This document shows positions 172 through 8,785 of a stretch of 8,940 bases of DNA, piece by piece. A program made the translations under genes and the position numbers. The stretch is from Moraxellaceae bacterium. Lineage in GTDB: Bacteria; Pseudomonadota; Gammaproteobacteria; Pseudomonadales; Moraxellaceae. The stretch is from contig JAJNDL010000237.1 in the NCBI GenBank assembly GCA_021156385.1, forward strand, positions 1 through 8,940. The letters run 5' to 3'. The notes under the pieces were generated by a model. It saw nothing but the letters and a program-made list of their open reading frames with translations, did not search any database and was not told the origin of the DNA. Position 1 is the stretch's first letter, and the number at the start of each line of letters is the position of its first letter.

Positions 172-912
172 ATGAAAATCACCATCCTCACCAAGGCGCT
201 CGCTGCTGCTGGCCTGATGACGGCGGCTGCCGTCGCCAATGCCGGGGTCACCGGCAACGTGGCTTTCACCACGGACTATCTGTTCCGCGGTATCAGCCAG
301 ACGTCTAACAACGCTGCCGTGCAGGGCACGCTGAGCTACGCCCACGAGAGCGGTTTCTATGCCACGGCCTGGGGCTCCAGCATCAGCAGCCCGGGTGGTT
401 TCGAGCTGGACACGCTGCTGGGTTATGCCGGCAAGGCCGGCGACGTCGGCTATGACGTCGGTGTGATGCGGTACAACTACCCGGGCTGGAACGACAACAA
501 TCTCGGCGTGCTTGACGCCAGCGGCAACCCGGTCGAGCCCGACTACAACGAAGCCTACGCCTCCGTTTCCTTCATGGGTGCCAAGCTGGGCCTGGCCTTC
601 AGCCCCGACTACTTCGCCGAGTCCGACCAGTTCCTCTATGTCTACCTGGACTACGCCAAGGAAATTGCCGGCGTCGGCCTGTTTGCGCACGTTGGCATGA
701 ACAGCTTCGACGACACCACGATGATGGCTCAAGCCCTGGGCTATGGCGGCAATGACGACAGCTACATCGATTACAAGGTGGCTGCGAGCAAGGCCGTGCA
801 GGGCGTGACCTTCGAGCTGGCCTACATGGGCTCTGACATTGACGACGCTGATCTCGGCAACTCCGGCATCGGCGAAGGCCGCTTCGTCGGCACGATCAGC
901 AAGTCGTTCTGA
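172..912 (+). CDS. TorF family putative outer-membrane porin (Gcw_chp family)
   Basis: A 246-residue protein. A Sec signal peptide covers residues 1-24 (MKIT start, hydrophobic AAAGLMTAAAVA core, probable cleavage after ANA). The mature part begins with the family-typical region containing TTDYLFRGISQT (about 32-43). Alternating polar/aromatic strands follow, and the protein ends in phenylalanine (GTISKSF), the usual signal for insertion of outer-membrane beta barrels by the BAM complex. The length of about 240 residues fits the family, whose substrates are mostly unknown. The start is supported by AAGGAG at 158-163, 8 nt before the ATG. The gene lies directly behind a sigma-54 promoter and 57 bp ahead of glnK-amtB, so a role in passing a nitrogen compound across the outer membrane is a reasonable inference. 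The substrate cannot be read from the sequence. Confidence 0.85.
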   Translation: MKITILTKALAAAGLMTAAAVANAGVTGNVAFTTDYLFRGISQTSNNAAVQGTLSYAHESGFYATAWGSSISSPGGFELDTLLGYAGKAGDVGYDVGVMRYNYPGWNDNNLGVLDASGNPVEPDYNEAYASVSFMGAKLGLAFSPDYFAESDQFLYVYLDYAKEIAGVGLFAHVGMNSFDDTTMMAQALGYGGNDDSYIDYKVAASKAVQGVTFELAYMGSDIDDADLGNSGIGEGRFVGTISKSF

Positions 913-922
913 CCAGCTGTTC

Positions 923-952
923 CCGCGCGCGGAAATCCGCGCGCGGACTTTT
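923..952 (+). terminator. GC-rich hairpin between porin and glnK (partial terminator or attenuator)
   Basis: Arms CCGCGCGCGG (923-932) and CCGCGCGCGG (937-946) pair perfectly around AAAT, with a short T run (949-952) downstream. The tract is only four T, so termination is probably incomplete. The hairpin starts 10 nt after the porin stop and ends just before the glnK Shine-Dalgarno (953-960). It may lower expression of glnK-amtB relative to the porin, or protect the 3' end of the porin message. Confidence 0.6.
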
Positions 953-954
953 AG

Positions 955-1308
<354 letters not shown>

Positions 1309-1357
1309 TTTCTTTACTCGCTGCCAAGATAACGCGAACCAACGCGGAGGATTCCTC

Positions 1358-2887
1358 GTGAAAAAATTTGTATATGCCCTCATGCTGGGTAGCGCCCTGG
1401 TGGCGAGCAGCCCTGCATTTGCAGAAGAGGCCCTGGCCGCTCCGGTTGCGGCAGAAGCTGCAGCCGCGCCTGCTGCCGAAGCTGTACCTGCCGCCGCGCC
1501 TGAAGCTGCTGCGGCGCCGGCTGCAACAGAAGCTGCCGCCCCGGCCGATGAATACAAGGCCCCGAGCTACGACATGGGCAACGTGTCGTGGATGATGACG
1601 GCCACCCTGCTCGTGATTTTCATGAGCCTGCCCGGCCTGGCGCTCTTCTACGGCGGCATGGTGCGCAAGAAGAACATGCTGTCCACGCTCATGCAGACCT
1701 TCACGATCTTCTGCGTGATCGCCGTGCTCTGGGTGGTCTACGGTTATTCCGTGGCCTTCTCCAACGGCAACGCCTACTTCGGCGGCCTCGACAAGTTCTT
1801 CCTGAACGGCGTGATCTACGACGCCAAGGGCAACTTCGTGCCGACCGCCACCTTCAGCAAGGGCGTGGTGATTCCCGAGCTCATGTTCGCCATGTTCCAG
1901 CTGACTTTCGCCTGCATCACCTGCGCGCTGATCGCCGGTGCCTATGCCGAGCGCATGAAGTTCTCCGCCGTGCTGATCTTCACCATCGTATGGTTCACCT
2001 TCTCCTACCTGCCCATGGCGCACATGGTCTGGTGGTGGCCGGGTCCGGACGCCTACACCGGCCCGGAAGTGGTCAATGAACTCAACGCCACCGCCGGCAA
2101 GCTCTGGCAGCTCGGCGCCCTCGACTTTGCCGGCGGCACCGTGGTGCACATCAACGCCGGTGTCGCGGGTCTCGTCGCCGCCATCATGCTCGGCAAGCGT
2201 CTCGGTTACGGCAAGGTGGCCATGCCTCCGCACAGCCTGGTCATGACCATGATCGGTGGCTGCATGCTGTGGGTGGGCTGGTTCGGCTTCAACGCCGGCT
2301 CCAACCTGGAAGCCAACGGCTATGCCGTGCTGGCCTTCGCCAACACCATCTTCGCGACCGCCGTTGCCGCGCTGGCCTGGCTGTTCGCCGAGTGGATCCA
2401 CAAGGGCAAGCCCAGCCTGCTGGGCGCCGTGTCCGGCGCCATCGCCGGCCTCGTCGGCGTCACCCCGGCCTGCGGTTTCGTCGGCCCCATGGGTGCGCTG
2501 GTGATCGGTCTGGCTGCTGGCCTCATCTGCTTCGTCTTCGTGGCCTTCCTCAAGAAGAAGCTGGGCTATGACGACGCGCTGGATGCCTTCGGCGTGCACG
2601 CCGTCGGCGGCATCGTCGGTGCCATCCTGACCGGCGTGTTCGTGAACCCCGCCCTGGGCGGAGCCGGTTACGTCACCGACGGCTGGGTCGGCCCGACCTT
2701 CGGTTACGACAGCGCGCAGATCATGATCCAGGTTAAGGCGGTACTGATCGCCATCGTCTGGAGCGCCGTGGTCAGCGCCGTGACCCTGTTCATCCTCGAC
2801 AAGGTCATCGGCCTCCGCGTCAGCGAAGAAGCCGAGCGCGAAGGTCTCGACATCGCCGAGCACGGCGAGCAGGCCTACAACGACTGA
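1358..2887 (+). CDS. amtB: Ammonium transporter AmtB
   Basis: A 509-residue inner-membrane Amt/Rh-family ammonium channel. The chosen start is GTG at 1358: GGAGGA (1346-1351) is 6 nt upstream, and the protein then begins with a clear signal peptide (MKKFVYALMLGSALVASSPAFA, written from M1 to A22). Residues 23-64 form an Ala/Pro/Glu-rich linker, followed by the multi-span channel from about residue 75. Key residues align with E. coli AmtB at a constant offset of 96: Asp256 (D160), the pore histidines His264 (VVHINAG, H168) and His414 (FGVHAVGG, H318), Phe311 (F215) and Ser315 (S219). The C-terminal tail ending EHGEQAYND is the region that contacts GlnK in this family. An in-frame ATG at 1283 would overlap glnK and bury the signal peptide, so it was rejected. 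The gene is the last of the sigma-54 cluster and has a strong terminator behind it. Confidence 0.96.
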   Translation: MKKFVYALMLGSALVASSPAFAEEALAAPVAAEAAAAPAAEAVPAAAPEAAAAPAATEAAAPADEYKAPSYDMGNVSWMMTATLLVIFMSLPGLALFYGGMVRKKNMLSTLMQTFTIFCVIAVLWVVYGYSVAFSNGNAYFGGLDKFFLNGVIYDAKGNFVPTATFSKGVVIPELMFAMFQLTFACITCALIAGAYAERMKFSAVLIFTIVWFTFSYLPMAHMVWWWPGPDAYTGPEVVNELNATAGKLWQLGALDFAGGTVVHINAGVAGLVAAIMLGKRLGYGKVAMPPHSLVMTMIGGCMLWVGWFGFNAGSNLEANGYAVLAFANTIFATAVAALAWLFAEWIHKGKPSLLGAVSGAIAGLVGVTPACGFVGPMGALVIGLAAGLICFVFVAFLKKKLGYDDALDAFGVHAVGGIVGAILTGVFVNPALGGAGYVTDGWVGPTFGYDSAQIMIQVKAVLIAIVWSAVVSAVTLFILDKVIGLRVSEEAEREGLDIAEHGEQAYND

Positions 2888-2903
2888 CCTTTCCGGTCGA
2901 TCC

Positions 2904-2935
2904 GGGAAAAGGGCCCTTGCGGGCCCTTTTCTTTT
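2904..2935 (+). terminator. Intrinsic terminator after amtB
   Basis: AAAAGGGCCC (2907-2916), loop TTGC, GGGCCCTTTT (2921-2930): a perfect 10-bp stem, extended by G2906-C2931, with CTTTTC following. It begins about 20 nt after the amtB stop and closes the porin-glnK-amtB unit. The A-rich left flank means it could also act on the other strand. Confidence 0.9.
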
Positions 2936-2968
2936 CCTGCCGCAGGGGCATCCGGGCGCCGTTCCGGC

Positions 2969-2997
2969 TTGGTAATCCCCCAAGGCGCCGCTATCAT
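2969..2997 (+). promoter_or_regulatory. Sigma-70 promoter of the MerR-family gene
   Basis: -35 TTGGTA (2969-2974, 4/6 to TTGACA), 17-bp spacer, -10 TATCAT (2992-2997, 5/6 to TATAAT). The expected transcription start is about 3004-3005, at or one base before the ATG, so the message would be leaderless or nearly so. CTTGG-N7-CCAAG (2968-2984) overlaps the -35 and spacer, and GGCGCC occurs at 2955-2960 and 2984-2989. These are possible operators, for instance for autoregulation. Confidence 0.65.
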
Positions 2998-3004
2998 CCC
3001 GCCC

Positions 3005-3793
3005 ATGAAAACACCGCAGTCGCTGCTGCAGCAGCTCCTGAAACAGGGACGTGACCTTCTGCCCACCGGATTGCTGGGCGATGAAGGCGGTAACGGACAT
3101 CAGGAATACTCCATCGATGAGCTCGCGCGCGTGGCCAATACCACCGTGCGCAACGTCCGCGCCTACCAGGACCGCGGCCTCATTCCCCCGCCCGTGCGCC
3201 GCGGCCGTGCCGGCGTCTACAACCAGGGCCACCTCTCCCGCCTCAATGTCATCGGCCAGTTGCTCGAGCGTGGCTACACCATCGCCAACATCAAGGAACT
3301 GATCTCGGCCTGGGAAAGCGGGCAGGACCTCGATCATGTGCTCGGGCTCGACTCCGCGCTGGCCGGCACCTGGACCGAAGAAATCCCGGTCTACATGGAG
3401 CCGGACGAAGTCAGCGAGCTGTTCGGCCCCGACATCACCGAGGAAACCCTGCGCAAGGCGCTGGAAGTCGGGCTCTTCGAGGTCGACGGCGACCGCCTCA
3501 AGATCACCAGCCCGCGTCTGCTGAACGCCGGGCTCGAGCTCTACCGCGCCGGCATTCCCCTGGCGGCGCTGCTGCGCGAACTCGAGGTGGTGCGCGCCGA
3601 CGTCGATCGCCTGACGCGCAGCTTCGTCCAGCTCGTGATCAATCATGTGGTGGAGCCGGTCACGGCCGACCAGCTGCCCAGTCCCGAGGAAATCGCGCGC
3701 CTCGCGGAGATCATCCAGCGCCTGCGTCCCCAAGCCCTGAGCCGGGCTGGTCATCTGCCAGCGCAGCCCGTCGGAATGCGCCATTTCTCTTGA
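3005..3793 (+). CDS. MerR-family transcriptional regulator
   Basis: A 262-residue DNA-binding protein. The winged helix-turn-helix of the MerR family occupies about residues 35-100: YSIDELARVANTTVRNVRAY, then the wing DRGLIPPPVRRGRAGVYNQG, then HLSRLNVIGQLLERGYTIANIKELI. It is about twice the size of a small MerR protein; the C-terminal 160 residues look like an effector or dimer domain of unknown ligand. No cysteine is present, which argues against a metal or redox sensor of the MerR/CueR/SoxR type. The start ATG at 3005 has no Shine-Dalgarno, but a good -10 box ends 7 nt upstream, suggesting leaderless translation. A TTG at 2969 in the same frame is the -35 element, not a start. It lies between the nitrogen genes and a phosphate-uptake operon; its targets are not evident. 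Confidence 0.88.
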   Translation: MKTPQSLLQQLLKQGRDLLPTGLLGDEGGNGHQEYSIDELARVANTTVRNVRAYQDRGLIPPPVRRGRAGVYNQGHLSRLNVIGQLLERGYTIANIKELISAWESGQDLDHVLGLDSALAGTWTEEIPVYMEPDEVSELFGPDITEETLRKALEVGLFEVDGDRLKITSPRLLNAGLELYRAGIPLAALLRELEVVRADVDRLTRSFVQLVINHVVEPVTADQLPSPEEIARLAEIIQRLRPQALSRAGHLPAQPVGMRHFS

Positions 3794-3835
3794 TGCAGGG
3801 CAAGACGGAGCGGGGTAGGACGCCACCTTCCGGAT

Positions 3836-3864
3836 GTGTCAACGTCGTTACAGTCTGGTTACGG
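3836..3864 (-). promoter_or_regulatory. Phased heptamer repeats resembling a reversed Pho box
   Basis: Three heptamers recur every 11 bp on the + strand: GTGTCAA (3836), GTTACAG (3847), GTTACGG (3858). On the - strand the last two read CCGTAAC-CAGA-CTGTAAC, which matches 13 of 18 positions of the PhoB box consensus (CTGTCAT-N4-CTGTMAY), including the whole second half-site. A weak -10 (TATCCT, 3868-3873) follows on the + strand. The downstream DUF47-PiT operon makes phosphate control plausible, but the orientation is opposite to that of an ordinary activating Pho box for these genes. Confidence 0.4.
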
Positions 3865-3910
3865 TGCTATCCTTGCCGCCCTCCAAAACCCTCTCCATAG
3901 GATGACTGCG

Positions 3911-4549
3911 ATGCTTGGCCGTTTCATGCCCAAGGAAGTCAAGTTCTTCGACCTCTTCAATGCCCATGCCAAGGAAATCGTGCGCGGCGCCGACGCCCTC
4001 GTCGCCCTGATGGCCGCCCTGAACCGCCAGCAGGAAGAGGCCGTGGCCCACGCCGAGGCCATCGACGCCATCGAGTCCCGCGCCGACAAGATCACCCACG
4101 AAACCGTTTCCCTGCTGCACTCCACGTTCATCACCCCGCTCGACCGCGACGAGATCCACCAGCTGATCTCCACCATGGACGATGTGCTGGACACCATCCA
4201 GGATGCCGCCCAGACCGTGAGCATGTACGACATCCGCCGTGCCACGCCGGAGGCCATCAAGCTCGCCGAGATCATCCGCGCCTCGGCCGAGAAGCTCTCG
4301 GCCGCCGTCGGCATGCTCGCCGACATGAACAATGGCCCGGCCATCCTCGAGGCCGCCCGCGTGCTCGACCGTCTGGAGGACGAGGCCGACGTGGTGCTGC
4401 GCCAGGCCATGTCGCGCCTGTTCCGCGAGGAAAGCGACGTCCGCGAGCTGATCAAGCTCAAGGCCATCTACGAACTGCTGGAAACCGTCACCGACCACTG
4501 CGACGACGTCGGCAACCTGCTCGAGGCCATCGTCCTCGAGAACTCCTGA
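3911..4549 (+). CDS. DUF47 family PhoU-like protein (PiT accessory)
   Basis: A 212-residue cytoplasmic, almost wholly helical protein of the DUF47/PhoU_div family. These proteins are usually encoded next to PiT phosphate transporters and are thought to modulate them as PhoU does for the Pst system. The N-terminus MLGRFMPKEVKFFDLFNAHA is typical of the family. PhoU-like E-x3-D metal-binding motifs are visible at E55SRAD59, E156DEAD160 and E191TVTD195, the last within the conserved ETVTDHCDDVGN segment. Start: AGGA at 3899-3902 is 8 nt before ATG 3911. An upstream ATG at 3902 would overlap that site, and a GTG at 3836 would add 25 residues without family resemblance. It lies 16 bp from the PiT gene, in one operon. 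Confidence 0.9.
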   Translation: MLGRFMPKEVKFFDLFNAHAKEIVRGADALVALMAALNRQQEEAVAHAEAIDAIESRADKITHETVSLLHSTFITPLDRDEIHQLISTMDDVLDTIQDAAQTVSMYDIRRATPEAIKLAEIIRASAEKLSAAVGMLADMNNGPAILEAARVLDRLEDEADVVLRQAMSRLFREESDVRELIKLKAIYELLETVTDHCDDVGNLLEAIVLENS

Positions 4550-4565
4550 TCCGGGAGGCTGAGTC

Positions 4566-5603
4566 ATGGATACGGTCACCCTGACCTTCGGAGTCGTGTT
4601 GTTCCTGGTGTTCCTGGCGCTGGCGTTCGACTTCATGAACGGTTTCCACGATGCCGCGAACTCCATCGCCACCGTGGTTTCCACCGGCGTGCTGAAGCCG
4701 CACCACGCGGTCGCCTTCGCCGCCTTCTTCAACTTCGTCGCGTTCTTCGTGTTCCCGCTGAAAGTAGCGGCCATGGTCGGCAAGGGCATCATCGATCCCT
4801 CGATCATCGACCACTACGTGGTGTTCGGCGCGCTGGTCGGCGCCATCAGCTGGAACTTCATCACCTGGTACTTCGGCATTCCGTCGAGCTCCTCGCATGC
4901 CCTCATCGGCGGCCTGGTGGGTGCGGCGCTGATGAAGGCCGGCGTGGGCTCGCTGAAGTGGGCCGGCCTCGGCAAGACCGTGGCCTTCATCCTCGTCTCG
5001 CCGATGCTGGGCTTCCTGTTCGGTTCTATCCTGATGCTGATCGTGGGCTGGATCTTCTTCCGCTTCGCACAGCGCCGCGTCGACAAGTACTTCCGCAAGG
5101 CACAGCTGGTGTCCGCGGCGCTCTACAGCCTCGGCCACGGCGGCAACGACGCGCAGAAGACGGCCGGCATCATCTGGATGCTGCTGATTGCGGCCACCGC
5201 CGCCAATCCGCACGTGCTGCCGAAGTGGATGCAGGCGCATCCGGACCATCTGCCGAGCTGGATCGTCATCACCTGCTATATCGTGATCGGCCTCGGCACC
5301 ATGTTCGGCGGCTGGCGCATCGTGAAGACCATGGGCCAGAAGATCACCAAGCTGAAGCCGGTCGGCGGCTTCTGCGCGGAGACCGGCGGCGCCATGACAT
5401 TGTTCCTGGCGACATCGCTCGGCATTCCCGTCTCGACGACGCACACCATCACCGGCGCCATCGTCGGCGTCGGCGCCACCCGGCGCGTCTCGGCGGTGCG
5501 CTGGGGCGTTGCGGGCGGCATCGTCTGGGCCTGGATCCTGACGATTCCCGCCAGCGCGCTCATTGCCGCAATTTTCTGGATGATCGGTACGGCGTTCCTG
5601 TAA
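4566..5603 (+). CDS. pit: PiT family inorganic phosphate transporter
   Basis: A 345-residue inner-membrane carrier of the PiT family (low-affinity, cation-coupled uptake of phosphate, often as a metal-phosphate complex). It shows the family's inverted repeat: GFHDAANSIAT (26-36) in the first half and LGHGGNDAQKTAGI (189-202) in the second. Each is followed by a serine/threonine-rich re-entrant motif, GIPSSSSHALIGG (104-116) and GIPVSTTHTITGA (286-298). It is shorter than E. coli PitA (about 500 residues) and close to the compact PiT proteins that pair with DUF47. Start: GGGAGG at 4553-4558, 7 nt before the ATG. It follows the DUF47 gene by 16 bp and ends at a strong terminator. The transported ion pair is inferred from the family. 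Confidence 0.93.
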   Translation: MDTVTLTFGVVLFLVFLALAFDFMNGFHDAANSIATVVSTGVLKPHHAVAFAAFFNFVAFFVFPLKVAAMVGKGIIDPSIIDHYVVFGALVGAISWNFITWYFGIPSSSSHALIGGLVGAALMKAGVGSLKWAGLGKTVAFILVSPMLGFLFGSILMLIVGWIFFRFAQRRVDKYFRKAQLVSAALYSLGHGGNDAQKTAGIIWMLLIAATAANPHVLPKWMQAHPDHLPSWIVITCYIVIGLGTMFGGWRIVKTMGQKITKLKPVGGFCAETGGAMTLFLATSLGIPVSTTHTITGAIVGVGATRRVSAVRWGVAGGIVWAWILTIPASALIAAIFWMIGTAFL

Positions 5604-5614
5604 AGGCGCGACGA

Positions 5615-5650
5615 CATGAAAAAGGCCACCTCCGCGTGGCCTTTTTCATG
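5615..5650. terminator. Intrinsic terminator after pit (bidirectional shape)
   Basis: CATGAAAAAGGCCAC (5615-5629) and GTGGCCTTTTTCATG (5636-5650) form a perfect 15-bp stem around CTCCGC. The T tract inside the right arm and the matching A tract in the left arm allow termination on either strand. It starts 12 nt after the pit stop. Confidence 0.9.
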
Positions 5651-5729
5651 GGTAACCGCCAGCAGGGCCCGATTCGGCAGGGGCGAATTTTTAGGCGATT
5701 TGTAAGTGCCGCGTCGGAAGTCCGTCGTA

Positions 5730-7219
5730 ATGTCGTACTCTCCAGCGATGCTGAAATTCCTTCCCCTTCCTGCCGTCATCGTCGACCTGGAAACCACTGG
5801 CGGCCGTGCCGCGTGGGACCGCATCACCGAGATCGGCATCATCGAGATCGCGGCCGACGGCAGCGTCAGCGAGTGGTCGACGCTGGTGAACCCGGGCTGC
5901 AGCATTCCCGCGCACATCCAGTGGCTGACCGGCATCACCAACGAGATGGTGGCGGATGCGCCGCGCTTCGAGGAACTCGCCGCCGCCTTGCACGAGCGGC
6001 TTGCCGGCAAGCTCTTCATTGCCCATAACGCCCGCTTCGACTACGGCTTCCTGCGCAACGAATTCGGCCGCGCCGGCCAGCGCTTTGCCGCGCGGCCCTT
6101 GTGTACGGTGCGGCTGTCGCGTGCCCTCTATCCGGCGTCACCGCGCCACAACCTCGATACGCTGGTCGAGCGCCACGGCATTGCCATGGTCGATCGCCAC
6201 CGTGCGCTGGGCGACGCCCGTGCCGTCTTCGAGTTCCTGCGCATCGCCGGCGCGGAGCAGGGCGAGGAGCGCATGGCACAGGCGCTGGCCGAGCTACGCA
6301 AACGGCCGGCGCTGCCCCCCTATCTGGAAAGCAATCTGGACGACCTGCCGGAAACCCCGGGTGTGTATTTCTTCTATGGCGAGGAGGACGTGCTGCTTTA
6401 CGTCGGCAAGAGCAAGAACCTTGCGGCGCGTGTGCCGTCGCACTTCGCCAGCGGCGACACCAGCACCAAGGCCGTGCGCATGGCGCAGCAGGTGCGCCGC
6501 ATCGACTGGGAAGAGACGGCCGGCGAGCTCTCCGCCCTGCTGCGCGAATCGCGGCTCGTGAAGGAACACCAGCCGCTGCACAACCGCCGGTTGCGCCGCG
6601 AGTCGCGACTGTGCTCGCTGCAGCTGGTGGAGGATGCAGACGGGCTGCTGCAACCCAAGGTCATCCATGCCGCCGACATTGCGGCCATCCAGCCGCGCAT
6701 GTTCGGCCTCTTCTCCGGCCCGGCGGCCGCCAAGAAACTGCTGCGCGAGATCGCGGCAGAGCACCGGCTCTGCCTCTACGCCACCGACCTCGAGAAGCGC
6801 GGGTCCCGGCCCTGTTCCGCCCGCCAGTTGAAGCGCTGCAACGGCCACTGCGACCCTGTTCCGCCCGCCAGTTGAAGCGCTGCAACGGCCACTGCGATGG
6901 CAGCGAAAGCACGCTCCAGCACAACCTGCGCTTCCTGCAGGCGCTGCAGAACCTGGCGCTCAAGGTCTGGCCCTATGCGGGACCGGTGGGCATCGTCGAG
7001 GAATGTGCCGAAAACGGCCGGCGCGAGATCCAGGTGGTGGACAACTGGTGCTGGCTCGGCACGGCACACAGCGACGAGGAACTGCACGAGATCCTTGCCG
7101 AGCCGAGCCGGCCGGTCTTCGATCGCGACACTTACAGCCTCCTCGTGTCGGCGCTGTTCGGCCGCAAGAAGATGCAGCTGCTGCCGCTGCAGTACCGGCA
7201 GCGCGCCCTGGCCGGTTGA
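5730..7219 (+). pseudogene. DEDDh exonuclease / GIY-YIG (UvrC/Cho-like) fusion, frameshifted by a 44-bp duplication
   Basis: A DNA-repair-type nuclease. Residues 15-175 are a DnaQ-like DEDDh 3'-5' exonuclease: D19LE21, NARFD104, H157RALGD162. Residues 205-290 are a GIY-YIG endonuclease as in UvrC/Cho: GVY (211-213), YVG (224-226), candidate catalytic Arg234 and Glu273. Next are four cysteines, C348, C362, C370 and C374; the last three have the spacing of the UvrC [4Fe-4S] ligands (C-x7-C-x3-C). A tandem 44-bp repeat then shifts the frame, and translation stops at 6875 after 381 residues, with DPVPPAS as the foreign tail. Removing one copy gives a continuous 481-residue protein ending at 7219, with about 106 further residues. 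The truncated product keeps both nuclease domains. Start: GGAAG (5716-5720) is 9 nt before ATG 5730; ATG 5748 is an alternative. Related fusions occur in other bacteria, including mycobacteria. Confidence 0.85.
6810..6897 (+). repeat. Perfect 44-bp tandem duplication
   Basis: Positions 6810-6853 are repeated exactly at 6854-6897, two head-to-tail copies with no mismatch. Each begins CCCTGTTCCGCC and ends GGCCACTGCGA. The unit encodes CSARQLKRCNGHC, the last three ligands of the four-cysteine motif. Because 44 is not a multiple of 3, the copy shifts the frame and brings a TGA into phase at 6873-6875. Perfect identity means the duplication is recent, unstable, or an assembly artefact. Confidence 0.97.
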
Positions 7220-7501
7220 GCGGAGGGCACGGCCGGGCCTGCCGGATGCCACATGGGTCCGCAGGAACTGTCCGCAGTGTCGGCCCGCAGGAAGACCAAC
7301 GGATTGCCGGTACGCCACTTCCGGCAGCTTTCCCTGTCCGCACAGGTGCGGGCGGTCCGGCTCCGGACCTAGAATCCGCACTTCCTCCGCACGCGAGTCC
7401 CTCCCGCATGTCCCGGCCCCTTCTGCCGCCTCCCGTCGCCAACGGCAGGCCTCTGTCGCCTGGCAGTGCCATGATGGCGCGCTCAGCCGGAGGCGCATCC
7501 C
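7220..7501. other. 282-bp intergenic region before the sensor kinase gene
   Basis: No coding region is supported here. The region holds two copies of CCGCAGGAA (7259-7267, 7285-7293), two neighbouring palindromes (7338-7351 and 7354-7369) and a -10-like hexamer (TAGAAT, 7370-7375). No convincing intrinsic terminator follows the nuclease gene, so some read-through into the kinase gene is possible. Confidence 0.6.
7338..7375 (+). promoter_or_regulatory. Candidate regB promoter with paired palindromes
   Basis: CCGCAC-AG-GTGCGG (7338-7351) and GGTCCGG-CT-CCGGACC (7354-7369) are adjacent palindromes with 2-nt centres. TAGAAT (7370-7375, 5/6 to TATAAT) directly follows. No good -35 lies 17 bp upstream; that position falls within the palindromes, which would fit a promoter that depends on a bound activator. 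This is inferred from position alone. Confidence 0.35.
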
Positions 7502-8785
7502 ATGCCTAGCCCGGCGCTGTTCGACTGGATGCGCGCGCCGGCGGCCACCGGCAAGCTGCGCTATCTCGCGCATTACCTAGGTAGCCTGACCGTCGTCATC
7601 GCGACGCTGGGCTATACACTGGAGTCGCACTGGCACATCGCGCTGCCGCAGGCCGCATTCTGGACAGCGCTGCTTGGCCACCTCGCGCTCACTCTCGTTG
7701 CCTGGCACCGTACGTTGCTCCGGGAGGACAGCAACACCGGCCTCTACCTCGCCGTGCTGCTGCTCTCCACGCTGCTGCTGGGCAGCCTGCTGCAGGCCGC
7801 CGGCGGCCACACCAATCCGCTGATCTCGCTGCTCCTCCTGCCGGTCGCCATGGGCGCGGCAACACTGCGCTGGCAGGCCACCGTGCTGCTGGCGCTGACG
7901 ACGCTTGCGCTCTACGCCGTGCTCATGCGCTGGTACGAACCGCTGCAGGGGCAGCATGGCATGCACGGTCATGCGCAGTTCATGGAGCTGCACCTGCTGG
8001 GCATGTGGCTGACCTTCTTGCTCTCGGTGGCGCTGCTGGTCGGCGTCGTGCTGCCGTTGACCGTGACGATGCAGCACCAGCAGGAGCAGATTGCACGGCA
8101 GCGCGAGCAGATGCTGCGCGACGAGCGCCTGGTGGCGCTCGCTACCTTCGCGGCCAGCGTGACGCACCAGCTAGGTACGCCGCTGTCCACACTGGCCGTG
8201 CTGGTTGACGACCTGCAGCAAGCGCCGAAGGATGCCGCGCAGGCCGAGGATCTCGCGCTCATGACGCGCCAGGTCGGGCACTGCAAGTCCATCCTGCAGT
8301 CGCTGGCGCAGCGTGCCGACGATGTCCGCCAGGGCCGGCGCCAGCGCGAACGCGTTGCCGATGTCGTGCAGCGCCTGCGCGAGCAGTTCGCGCTGCTGCA
8401 TCCGGCGCGGCAGCTCAGGCTGGCGGCGCCGGCGGCGCCCGATTGGGAAGTACTGTGCGACGTGACGCTGGAGCAGGCGCTGCTCAACCTGCTCGACAAC
8501 GCCGCGCAAGCCGGCGCGGGCGACCCGCAACTCGATCTGCAGCGCGAGGGCGACTGGCTCTGCCTGCGCCTGCGCGATGAAGGCAGCGGCATTCCCGAGG
8601 CCATCCGCGCGCAGCTCGGCCAGCCCTTCGTCAGCAGCCGCTCGGGTGGCACCGGTCTCGGTCTCTTCCTCTCGCATGCCGGCATCGAACGGCTTGGCGG
8701 CACGTTGCGGCTCGAGAGCAGCGGCGCGGGCACGCTGGCGGAAGTGCGCCTGCCGCTGGCGCCCGCCGGGAGCGGGCTGGCATGA
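7502..8785 (+). CDS. regB: RegB/PrrB-type redox sensor histidine kinase
   Basis: A 427-residue membrane histidine kinase. About six hydrophobic segments fill residues 20-190. They include GGHTNPL (101-107), corresponding to the quinone-sensing heptapeptide of RegB. The dimerisation/phosphotransfer helix carries His222 in THQLGTPLSTL, a hallmark of the RegB group. Cys261 (GHCKSIL) aligns with the redox-active cysteine of Rhodobacter RegB (Cys265). The ATPase domain shows the N box LLNLLDNAAQA (327-337), G1 DEGSGIP (359-365), F box GQPFVSSRS (373-381) and G2 GGTGLGL (382-388). Start: GGAGG at 7489-7493, 8 nt before the ATG. Its stop overlaps the start of the response-regulator gene (ATGA). The family controls respiration, carbon and nitrogen fixation genes in response to redox state; the targets here are unknown. 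Confidence 0.9.
   Translation: MPSPALFDWMRAPAATGKLRYLAHYLGSLTVVIATLGYTLESHWHIALPQAAFWTALLGHLALTLVAWHRTLLREDSNTGLYLAVLLLSTLLLGSLLQAAGGHTNPLISLLLLPVAMGAATLRWQATVLLALTTLALYAVLMRWYEPLQGQHGMHGHAQFMELHLLGMWLTFLLSVALLVGVVLPLTVTMQHQQEQIARQREQMLRDERLVALATFAASVTHQLGTPLSTLAVLVDDLQQAPKDAAQAEDLALMTRQVGHCKSILQSLAQRADDVRQGRRQRERVADVVQRLREQFALLHPARQLRLAAPAAPDWEVLCDVTLEQALLNLLDNAAQAGAGDPQLDLQREGDWLCLRLRDEGSGIPEAIRAQLGQPFVSSRSGGTGLGLFLSHAGIERLGGTLRLESSGAGTLAEVRLPLAPAGSGLA

What the first reader, a model, noticed from the sequence alone, without database searches (positions are those of the whole stretch)
6810..6897. Perfect 44-bp tandem duplication breaks a nuclease gene at its four-cysteine motif
Two identical head-to-tail 44-bp copies shift the frame. 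Deleting one restores a 481-residue exonuclease/GIY-YIG protein with a C-terminal domain of about 106 residues. The unit covers three of four presumed iron-sulfur ligands. Long perfect tandem repeats can be lost by replication slippage or recombination, so the gene could switch between a full-length form and a 381-residue form that keeps both nuclease domains. A recent fixed mutation or an assembly error would look the same.
Basis: partly seen in the sequence, partly recalled or inferred. Interest (0 to 1): 0.7.

Follow-up and report, generated by a model that had tools for sequence, protein, structure and literature searches.

The report
Likely false repeat in nuclease gene
In the assembled sequence an exact 44-base repeat cuts short a gene that by sequence belongs to a known family of predicted DNA-repair nucleases, and the repeat is most likely a joining error of the metagenome assembly rather than a genetic switch.

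Summary
In detail: window 6810-6897 holds two identical 44-bp units. The frame opened at 5730 stops at 6873-6875 (381 residues); the rest of the protein is open in another frame to 7219. The gene matches the known Cho+Exo nucleases (exonuclease, GIY-YIG, four cysteines, Cho C-terminal domain). A near-identical intact 481-residue protein is in the public protein set, and the part after the break shows no decay. The window is one whole contig of a fragmented metagenome bin. In the 121 readable contigs I examined (of 452), perfect tandem duplications of 20 bp or more with a length not divisible by three occur three times (20, 23, 44 bp). All three lie in contigs that seem to have been lengthened after length-ranking (chance 0.06); 703 kb of loci from other genomes gave none. 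Two contig pairs share exact 99-bp end overlaps, so 44 bp is below the likely merging length. I favour an unmerged overlap at a contig join (0.6) over a real recent duplication (0.33). Against this, no single join in the window fits its length rank, and no Ns mark a join. Nothing beyond the repeat itself supports a switch. Raw reads would settle it. Interest is low.

The parts
5730..6875 (+). Open frame of 381 residues: exonuclease, GIY-YIG and the complete four-cysteine motif, then PVPPAS and a stop inside the second repeat copy
   Evidence: RNase_T and GIY-YIG domains
6810..6853 (+). first 44-bp copy, read in the gene's frame; encodes cysteines 2-4 of the motif
6854..6897 (+). second, identical 44-bp copy; read out of frame from the gene's start, in frame with the C-terminal part
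6771..6773 (+). codon of the first cysteine of the motif, outside the repeat
   Evidence: sequence; cysteine invariant in 36 of 36 aligned proteins
6873..6875 (+). stop codon of the short frame; it overlaps a TTG at 6872-6874 that lies in the downstream frame
6899..7219 (+). remaining C-terminal part (106 residues and stop), matching the end of the excinuclease Cho model

Best explanation
The second 44-bp copy is most likely an assembly artefact: two contigs that overlapped by 44 bp were probably set end to end without merging the overlap, inside an otherwise ordinary Cho+Exo nuclease gene. Shown: the window is one complete contig of a fragmented bin; two pairs of contig ends in this bin share exact 99-bp overlaps; a near-identical intact protein exists. 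Inferred: that this contig was lengthened by joining after length-ranking, and that one join lies at the repeat. On this reading the organism carries the unit once and makes a full-length protein, predicted to act like Cho/UvrC in cutting damaged DNA, with an added exonuclease.
For: The window is contig C208, 8940 bases, of a bin with 452 contigs and 59% completeness. In number order the contig lengths form a falling series with others set in between; C208 stands between 3756 and 3727 bases, so it looks lengthened. Among 121 readable contigs (718,870 bases) the perfect tandem duplications of 20 bp or more, apart from a hexamer array in C43, are 23 bp (C53), 21 bp (C69, in frame), 44 bp (C208) and 20 bp (C411); all four lie in contigs that seem lengthened, none in the series (C411 assigned by eye). 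Chance 0.06 for the three whose length is not a multiple of three, 0.02 for all four. In C53 the first copy ends at 5963-5964, inside the interval 5856-5967 predicted for the contig before lengthening (chance 0.03). Among 90 loci of other genomes, 703,374 bases, no perfect tandem of 20 bp or more with a period not divisible by three was seen. Exact end overlaps found were 99 bp only, so a 44-bp overlap is below the likely k. Duplicate sequence left at scaffold joins despite overlap is on record for IDBA-UD and CLC (PMC7111523, passages seen). P0003 has the same protein intact.
Against: In the window no single join at the repeat gives a piece of 3727-3756 bases; three or more pieces are needed. 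The counts are small and the lengthening is inferred from contig order. The published error leaves Ns between the copies; no readable contig here has Ns (and none of the readable ones was all N; Ns were not counted for C41-C80). A real duplication present in part of the population would also break and rejoin contigs, so the association with lengthened contigs does not exclude it. The 99-bp shared stretch of C50 and C53 that ends at the C53 repeat is expected under both readings.
Confidence: 0.6

Rival explanations
1. A real, recent 44-bp tandem duplication in this strain or in part of the sampled population: a chance truncating mutation that leaves exonuclease, GIY-YIG and cysteines and drops the C-terminal domain.
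For: Perfect identity of the copies and constraint in the part behind the break (dN/dS 0.35 and 0.29, against 0.36 between two intact relatives) fit a very recent event. The gene is patchy in the genus: 3 of 9 genomes, own included, have the full-length kind, so loss would be tolerated. A mixed population would explain why such repeats lie in rejoined contigs.
Against: It asks for three separate frame-breaking duplications in about a third of one genome, against none in 703 kb of other genomes. No shared bases at the junction that would favour slippage.
Confidence: 0.33
2. A reversible switch: gain and loss of one 44-bp copy toggles the population between the 481-residue enzyme and a 381-residue form without the Cho domain.
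For: A perfect head-to-tail repeat could in principle be lost again; a near-identical intact protein exists; the short form keeps both nuclease domains and all four cysteines.
Against: Only two copies. None of the 120 homologues listed (of 7127 found) is of the short kind; they have 452-512 residues. No detached C-terminal piece close to this one was found, though that search did not show the window's own piece either. No evidence of both alleles in one population.
Confidence: 0.04
3. A split gene: the ribosome stops at 6873-6875 and restarts at the overlapping TTG 6872-6874, making the C-terminal domain as a second chain.
For: TTG and TGA overlap and the TTG is in the downstream frame.
Against: The TTG is simply the Leu codon of the repeated unit; I see no ribosome-binding site before it (by eye); the same search gave no close detached C-terminal piece elsewhere.
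Confidence: 0.03

Closest known systems
Cho+Exo subfamily of UvrC-like GIY-YIG nucleases (PMC1564403, passages and part of Table 1 seen)
   Same: Exonuclease domain in front, GIY-YIG, four conserved cysteines, Cho C-terminal domain; P0003 and the two window pieces match these in order
   Different: In the window the Cho domain is in another frame; intact in P0003. The paper, of 2006, places this variant in a few Betaproteobacteria; the nearest named relative here is labelled Moraxellaceae
Scaffolding error with a duplicated overlap (PMC7111523, passages seen)
   Same: Overlap between the two flanks of a join left as duplicate sequence; reported for IDBA-UD and CLC assemblies
   Different: The published cases carry Ns between the copies; none in this window
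UvrC four-cysteine [4Fe-4S] site (PMC8837605, passage seen)
   Same: Last three cysteines with the same spacing x7, x3 as in the bin's own UvrC
   Different: First gap x13 here, x11 in UvrC; no cluster has been shown for this protein in anything I saw

Membership tests
Cho+Exo nuclease | N-terminal DnaQ/ExoIII-type exonuclease domain | tested here: met
   RNase_T 1.4e-31 in the 5' piece
Cho+Exo nuclease | GIY-YIG domain | tested here: met
   PF01541 1e-07 in the 5' piece
Cho+Exo nuclease | four conserved cysteines after the GIY-YIG domain | tested here: met
   C348, C362, C370, C374 of P0003 invariant in 36 of 36 aligned proteins, 36 chosen from 120 listed; all four are in the window's 5' piece
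Cho+Exo nuclease | Cho C-terminal domain in the same chain | tested here: not met
   In the window it is in another frame; in the near-identical P0003 it is in the same chain (Cho model 194-465). So the locus is a broken member as assembled
Cho+Exo nuclease | incision of damaged DNA | not testable with these tools
   needs an assay
Phase-variable gene | both alleles in one clonal population | not testable with these tools
   no reads available
Phase-variable gene | repeat number differs between near-identical strains | tested here: inconclusive
   P0003 lacks the duplication at protein level, but the window's two copies may be an artefact
Phase-variable gene | repeat conserved at this site in relatives | tested here: not met
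   No 44-bp perfect tandem in 90 loci of other genomes; L003, L004 and L005 have frames of 481-488 residues
Assembly join artefact | such duplications confined to joined contigs of the bin | tested here: met
   4 of 4 of 20 bp or more (hexamer array aside) in contigs that seem lengthened, 0 in the series; P 0.02-0.06
Assembly join artefact | repeat at the end predicted from the contig's length rank | tested here: inconclusive
   fits in C53, fits loosely in C411 (2459, below 2507), does not fit in the window or in C69
Assembly join artefact | no read spans both copies | not testable with these tools
   no reads available

The most novel reading that the evidence does not exclude
A DNA-repair nuclease is toggled by gain and loss of a 44-bp repeat laid over its metal-cluster motif, switching a population between a full Cho-type enzyme and a shorter exonuclease/GIY-YIG form without the Cho domain, and so between repair states.
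Probability: 0.04. Interest if true: 0.55.

Novelty: not a real feature. Interest (0 to 1): 0.12.

Why it matters
As a switch it would be a new way to vary repair capacity. As an artefact it is a warning: short exact tandem duplications in fragmented metagenome bins can fake gene truncations, and comparing lengthened with unlengthened contigs of the same bin is a cheap check that needs no reads.

Tried and rejected
Slippage between shared bases at the junction: none present, identity ends exactly with the unit. Old, decaying pseudogene: rejected, dN/dS behind the break is like that between intact relatives. A bin generally rich in long tandem repeats: rejected, the other perfect tandems in the 121 readable contigs are 9-12 bp, one hexamer array, and the 20-, 21- and 23-bp ones discussed. 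The 99-bp stretch shared by C50 and C53 as proof of a join: set aside, because the shared stretch must end where the two sequences part. Detached C-terminal pieces elsewhere: one protein at E <= 1e-20 among 8 candidates, 43% identical, on a 1768-bp contig; since the window's own piece was not listed either, this says little. Promoter scan 5550-7560: no promoter-like site. Literature searches: I took no measured loss rate for two 44-bp copies from them, so none is quoted.

Full report
Observation. The repeat is as described: 6810-6853 and 6854-6897 are identical, with no extension on either side. The frame that begins at ATG 5730 runs through the first copy and stops at 6873-6875 inside the second. 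The remaining protein is open in another frame to 7219. The unit covers cysteines 2-4 of the motif, and the short product still has all four because copy 1 is read in frame.

The gene. The 5' piece matches RNase_T and GIY-YIG and, in NCBIfam, exonuclease, Cho and UvrC models below their cut-offs; the 3' piece matches the end of the excinuclease Cho model (5.5e-23, positions 181-280 of 289). Exonuclease + GIY-YIG + C4 + Cho C-terminal domain is the Cho+Exo subfamily of PMC1564403 (passages and part of Table 1 seen). The four cysteines are invariant in 36 of 36 aligned proteins, which I chose from 120 listed out of 7127 found. Their spacing is x13, x7, x3; the UvrC of the same bin has x11, x7, x3. 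A passage of PMC8837605 says that UvrC coordinates a [4Fe-4S] cluster; for the present protein a cluster is an inference. PMC1564403 relates a proposal for exonuclease-fused relatives in mycobacteria: the GIY-YIG domain incises and the exonuclease digests from there through the lesion. None of this was tested here.

Intact relatives. P0003 (481 residues, cluster of 6 member sequences, longest contig 52,582 bases, so not the window's contig) agrees with the window at 369 of 374 residues before the break and at 122 of 126 over P0002; three of those four differences are letters in front of the second copy that are out of the gene's frame there, one is a true difference. Its sources are not shown, so I cannot say from which sample it comes. 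Of 58 related genomes, the window's own included, 11 have a match to the 5' piece at E <= 1e-30; one of these (G042) covers only the exonuclease. In the genus 3 of 9 genomes, own included, have the full-length kind. In L013 the DUF47 and phosphate transporter genes also lie in front of it; the histidine kinase behind it has only a weak partial match there, 34% over 86 residues.

No decay. dN/dS behind the break is 0.35 (against L196) and 0.29 (L198); before it 0.22 and 0.24. The two intact relatives against each other give 0.36 behind and 0.26 before (ratios computed from the printed dN and dS). So the event is very recent or not real.

Artefact or real. The window is a whole contig, C208, of a bin with 452 contigs, 2,256,748 bases. 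I fetched 140 further contigs; 20 of these are masked, so with the window 121 are readable, 718,870 bases. In number order the lengths form a falling series with others set in between that are too long for their place, or that are only 2.5-3.4 kb among contigs twice as long. The simplest reading, an inference, is that contigs were numbered by length, some were lengthened later, and names were sorted as text. Of C1-C407, 84 of the 128 fetched are in the series and 44 are not; readable bases are 403,785 in the series and 262,764 outside it. Of the seven readable contigs after C407 I count C410, C411 and C419 as lengthened and C413, C415, C417 and C418 as in series, by eye.

Perfect tandem duplications of 20 bp or more, apart from a hexamer array in C43, are four: C53 (23 bp), C69 (21 bp, in an alanine-rich frame), C208 (44 bp) and C411 (20 bp). 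All are in contigs that seem lengthened. Of the 12-bp ones three are outside the series (C50, C202, C216) and one is inside (C219). The three whose length is not a multiple of three shift frames: in C53 a gene that looks tonB-like by eye, whose relative in C50 has the stretch once; in C411 a minus-strand gene near its end, which has matches at E <= 1e-40 in 8 of 9 genus genomes, own included. If placed at random by bases, all three would fall in lengthened contigs with P = 0.06, all four with 0.02. In C53 the first copy ends within the length interval predicted from rank (chance 0.03); in C411 it ends at 2459, below the 2507 expected as upper limit; in C69 and in the window no single join fits. 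Among 90 loci of other genomes, 703,374 bases, no perfect tandem of 20 bp or more with a period not divisible by three was seen; shorter ones of 14 and 17 bp were. These loci all surround one gene family and at least two overlap, a limit of this control.

Two pairs of contigs overlap by exactly 99 bp at their ends, and no other exact end overlap of 15-300 bp was found among the 121, which points to a k near 100. Overlaps of 20-44 bp lie below that and could stay unmerged in the graph. Passages of PMC7111523 describe Ns inserted during scaffolding despite overlap of the flanks, in IDBA-UD and CLC assemblies, leaving duplicate sequence, and wrong repeat numbers as a common error. Here no Ns are present, so the match to that description is partial.

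Verdict. I commit to the join artefact at 0.6. A real recent duplication stays open at 0.33, because a duplication present in part of a population would break and rejoin contigs in the same way. Switching has no support beyond the repeat itself.

Noticed in passing
L235 (contig C53) 5941-5987: A 23-bp perfect tandem duplication shifts the frame of a tonB-like gene (named by eye); C50 ends with 99 exact bases of the same gene and has the stretch once.
   Followed up: yes
L186 (contig C411) 2440-2479: A 20-bp perfect tandem duplication shifts the frame of a minus-strand gene near its end; C422 of the same bin has a 91% identical stretch over 105 residues of that protein.
   Followed up: partly
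window 5615-5650: Perfect 15-bp inverted repeat with a 6-base loop between the phosphate transporter and the nuclease gene, with AAAAA/TTTTT in its arms; looks like a terminator.
   Followed up: no
L225 (contig C43) 4770-4840: Array of a 6-bp unit (CGCTGA), about 12 copies, perfect over 71 bases.
   Followed up: no
window 172-5603 and 7502-8785: Ordinary neighbours: Gcw_chp protein, GlnK-like and AmtB-like frames (by eye), MerR regulator, DUF47 protein, phosphate transporter, histidine kinase.
   Followed up: partly
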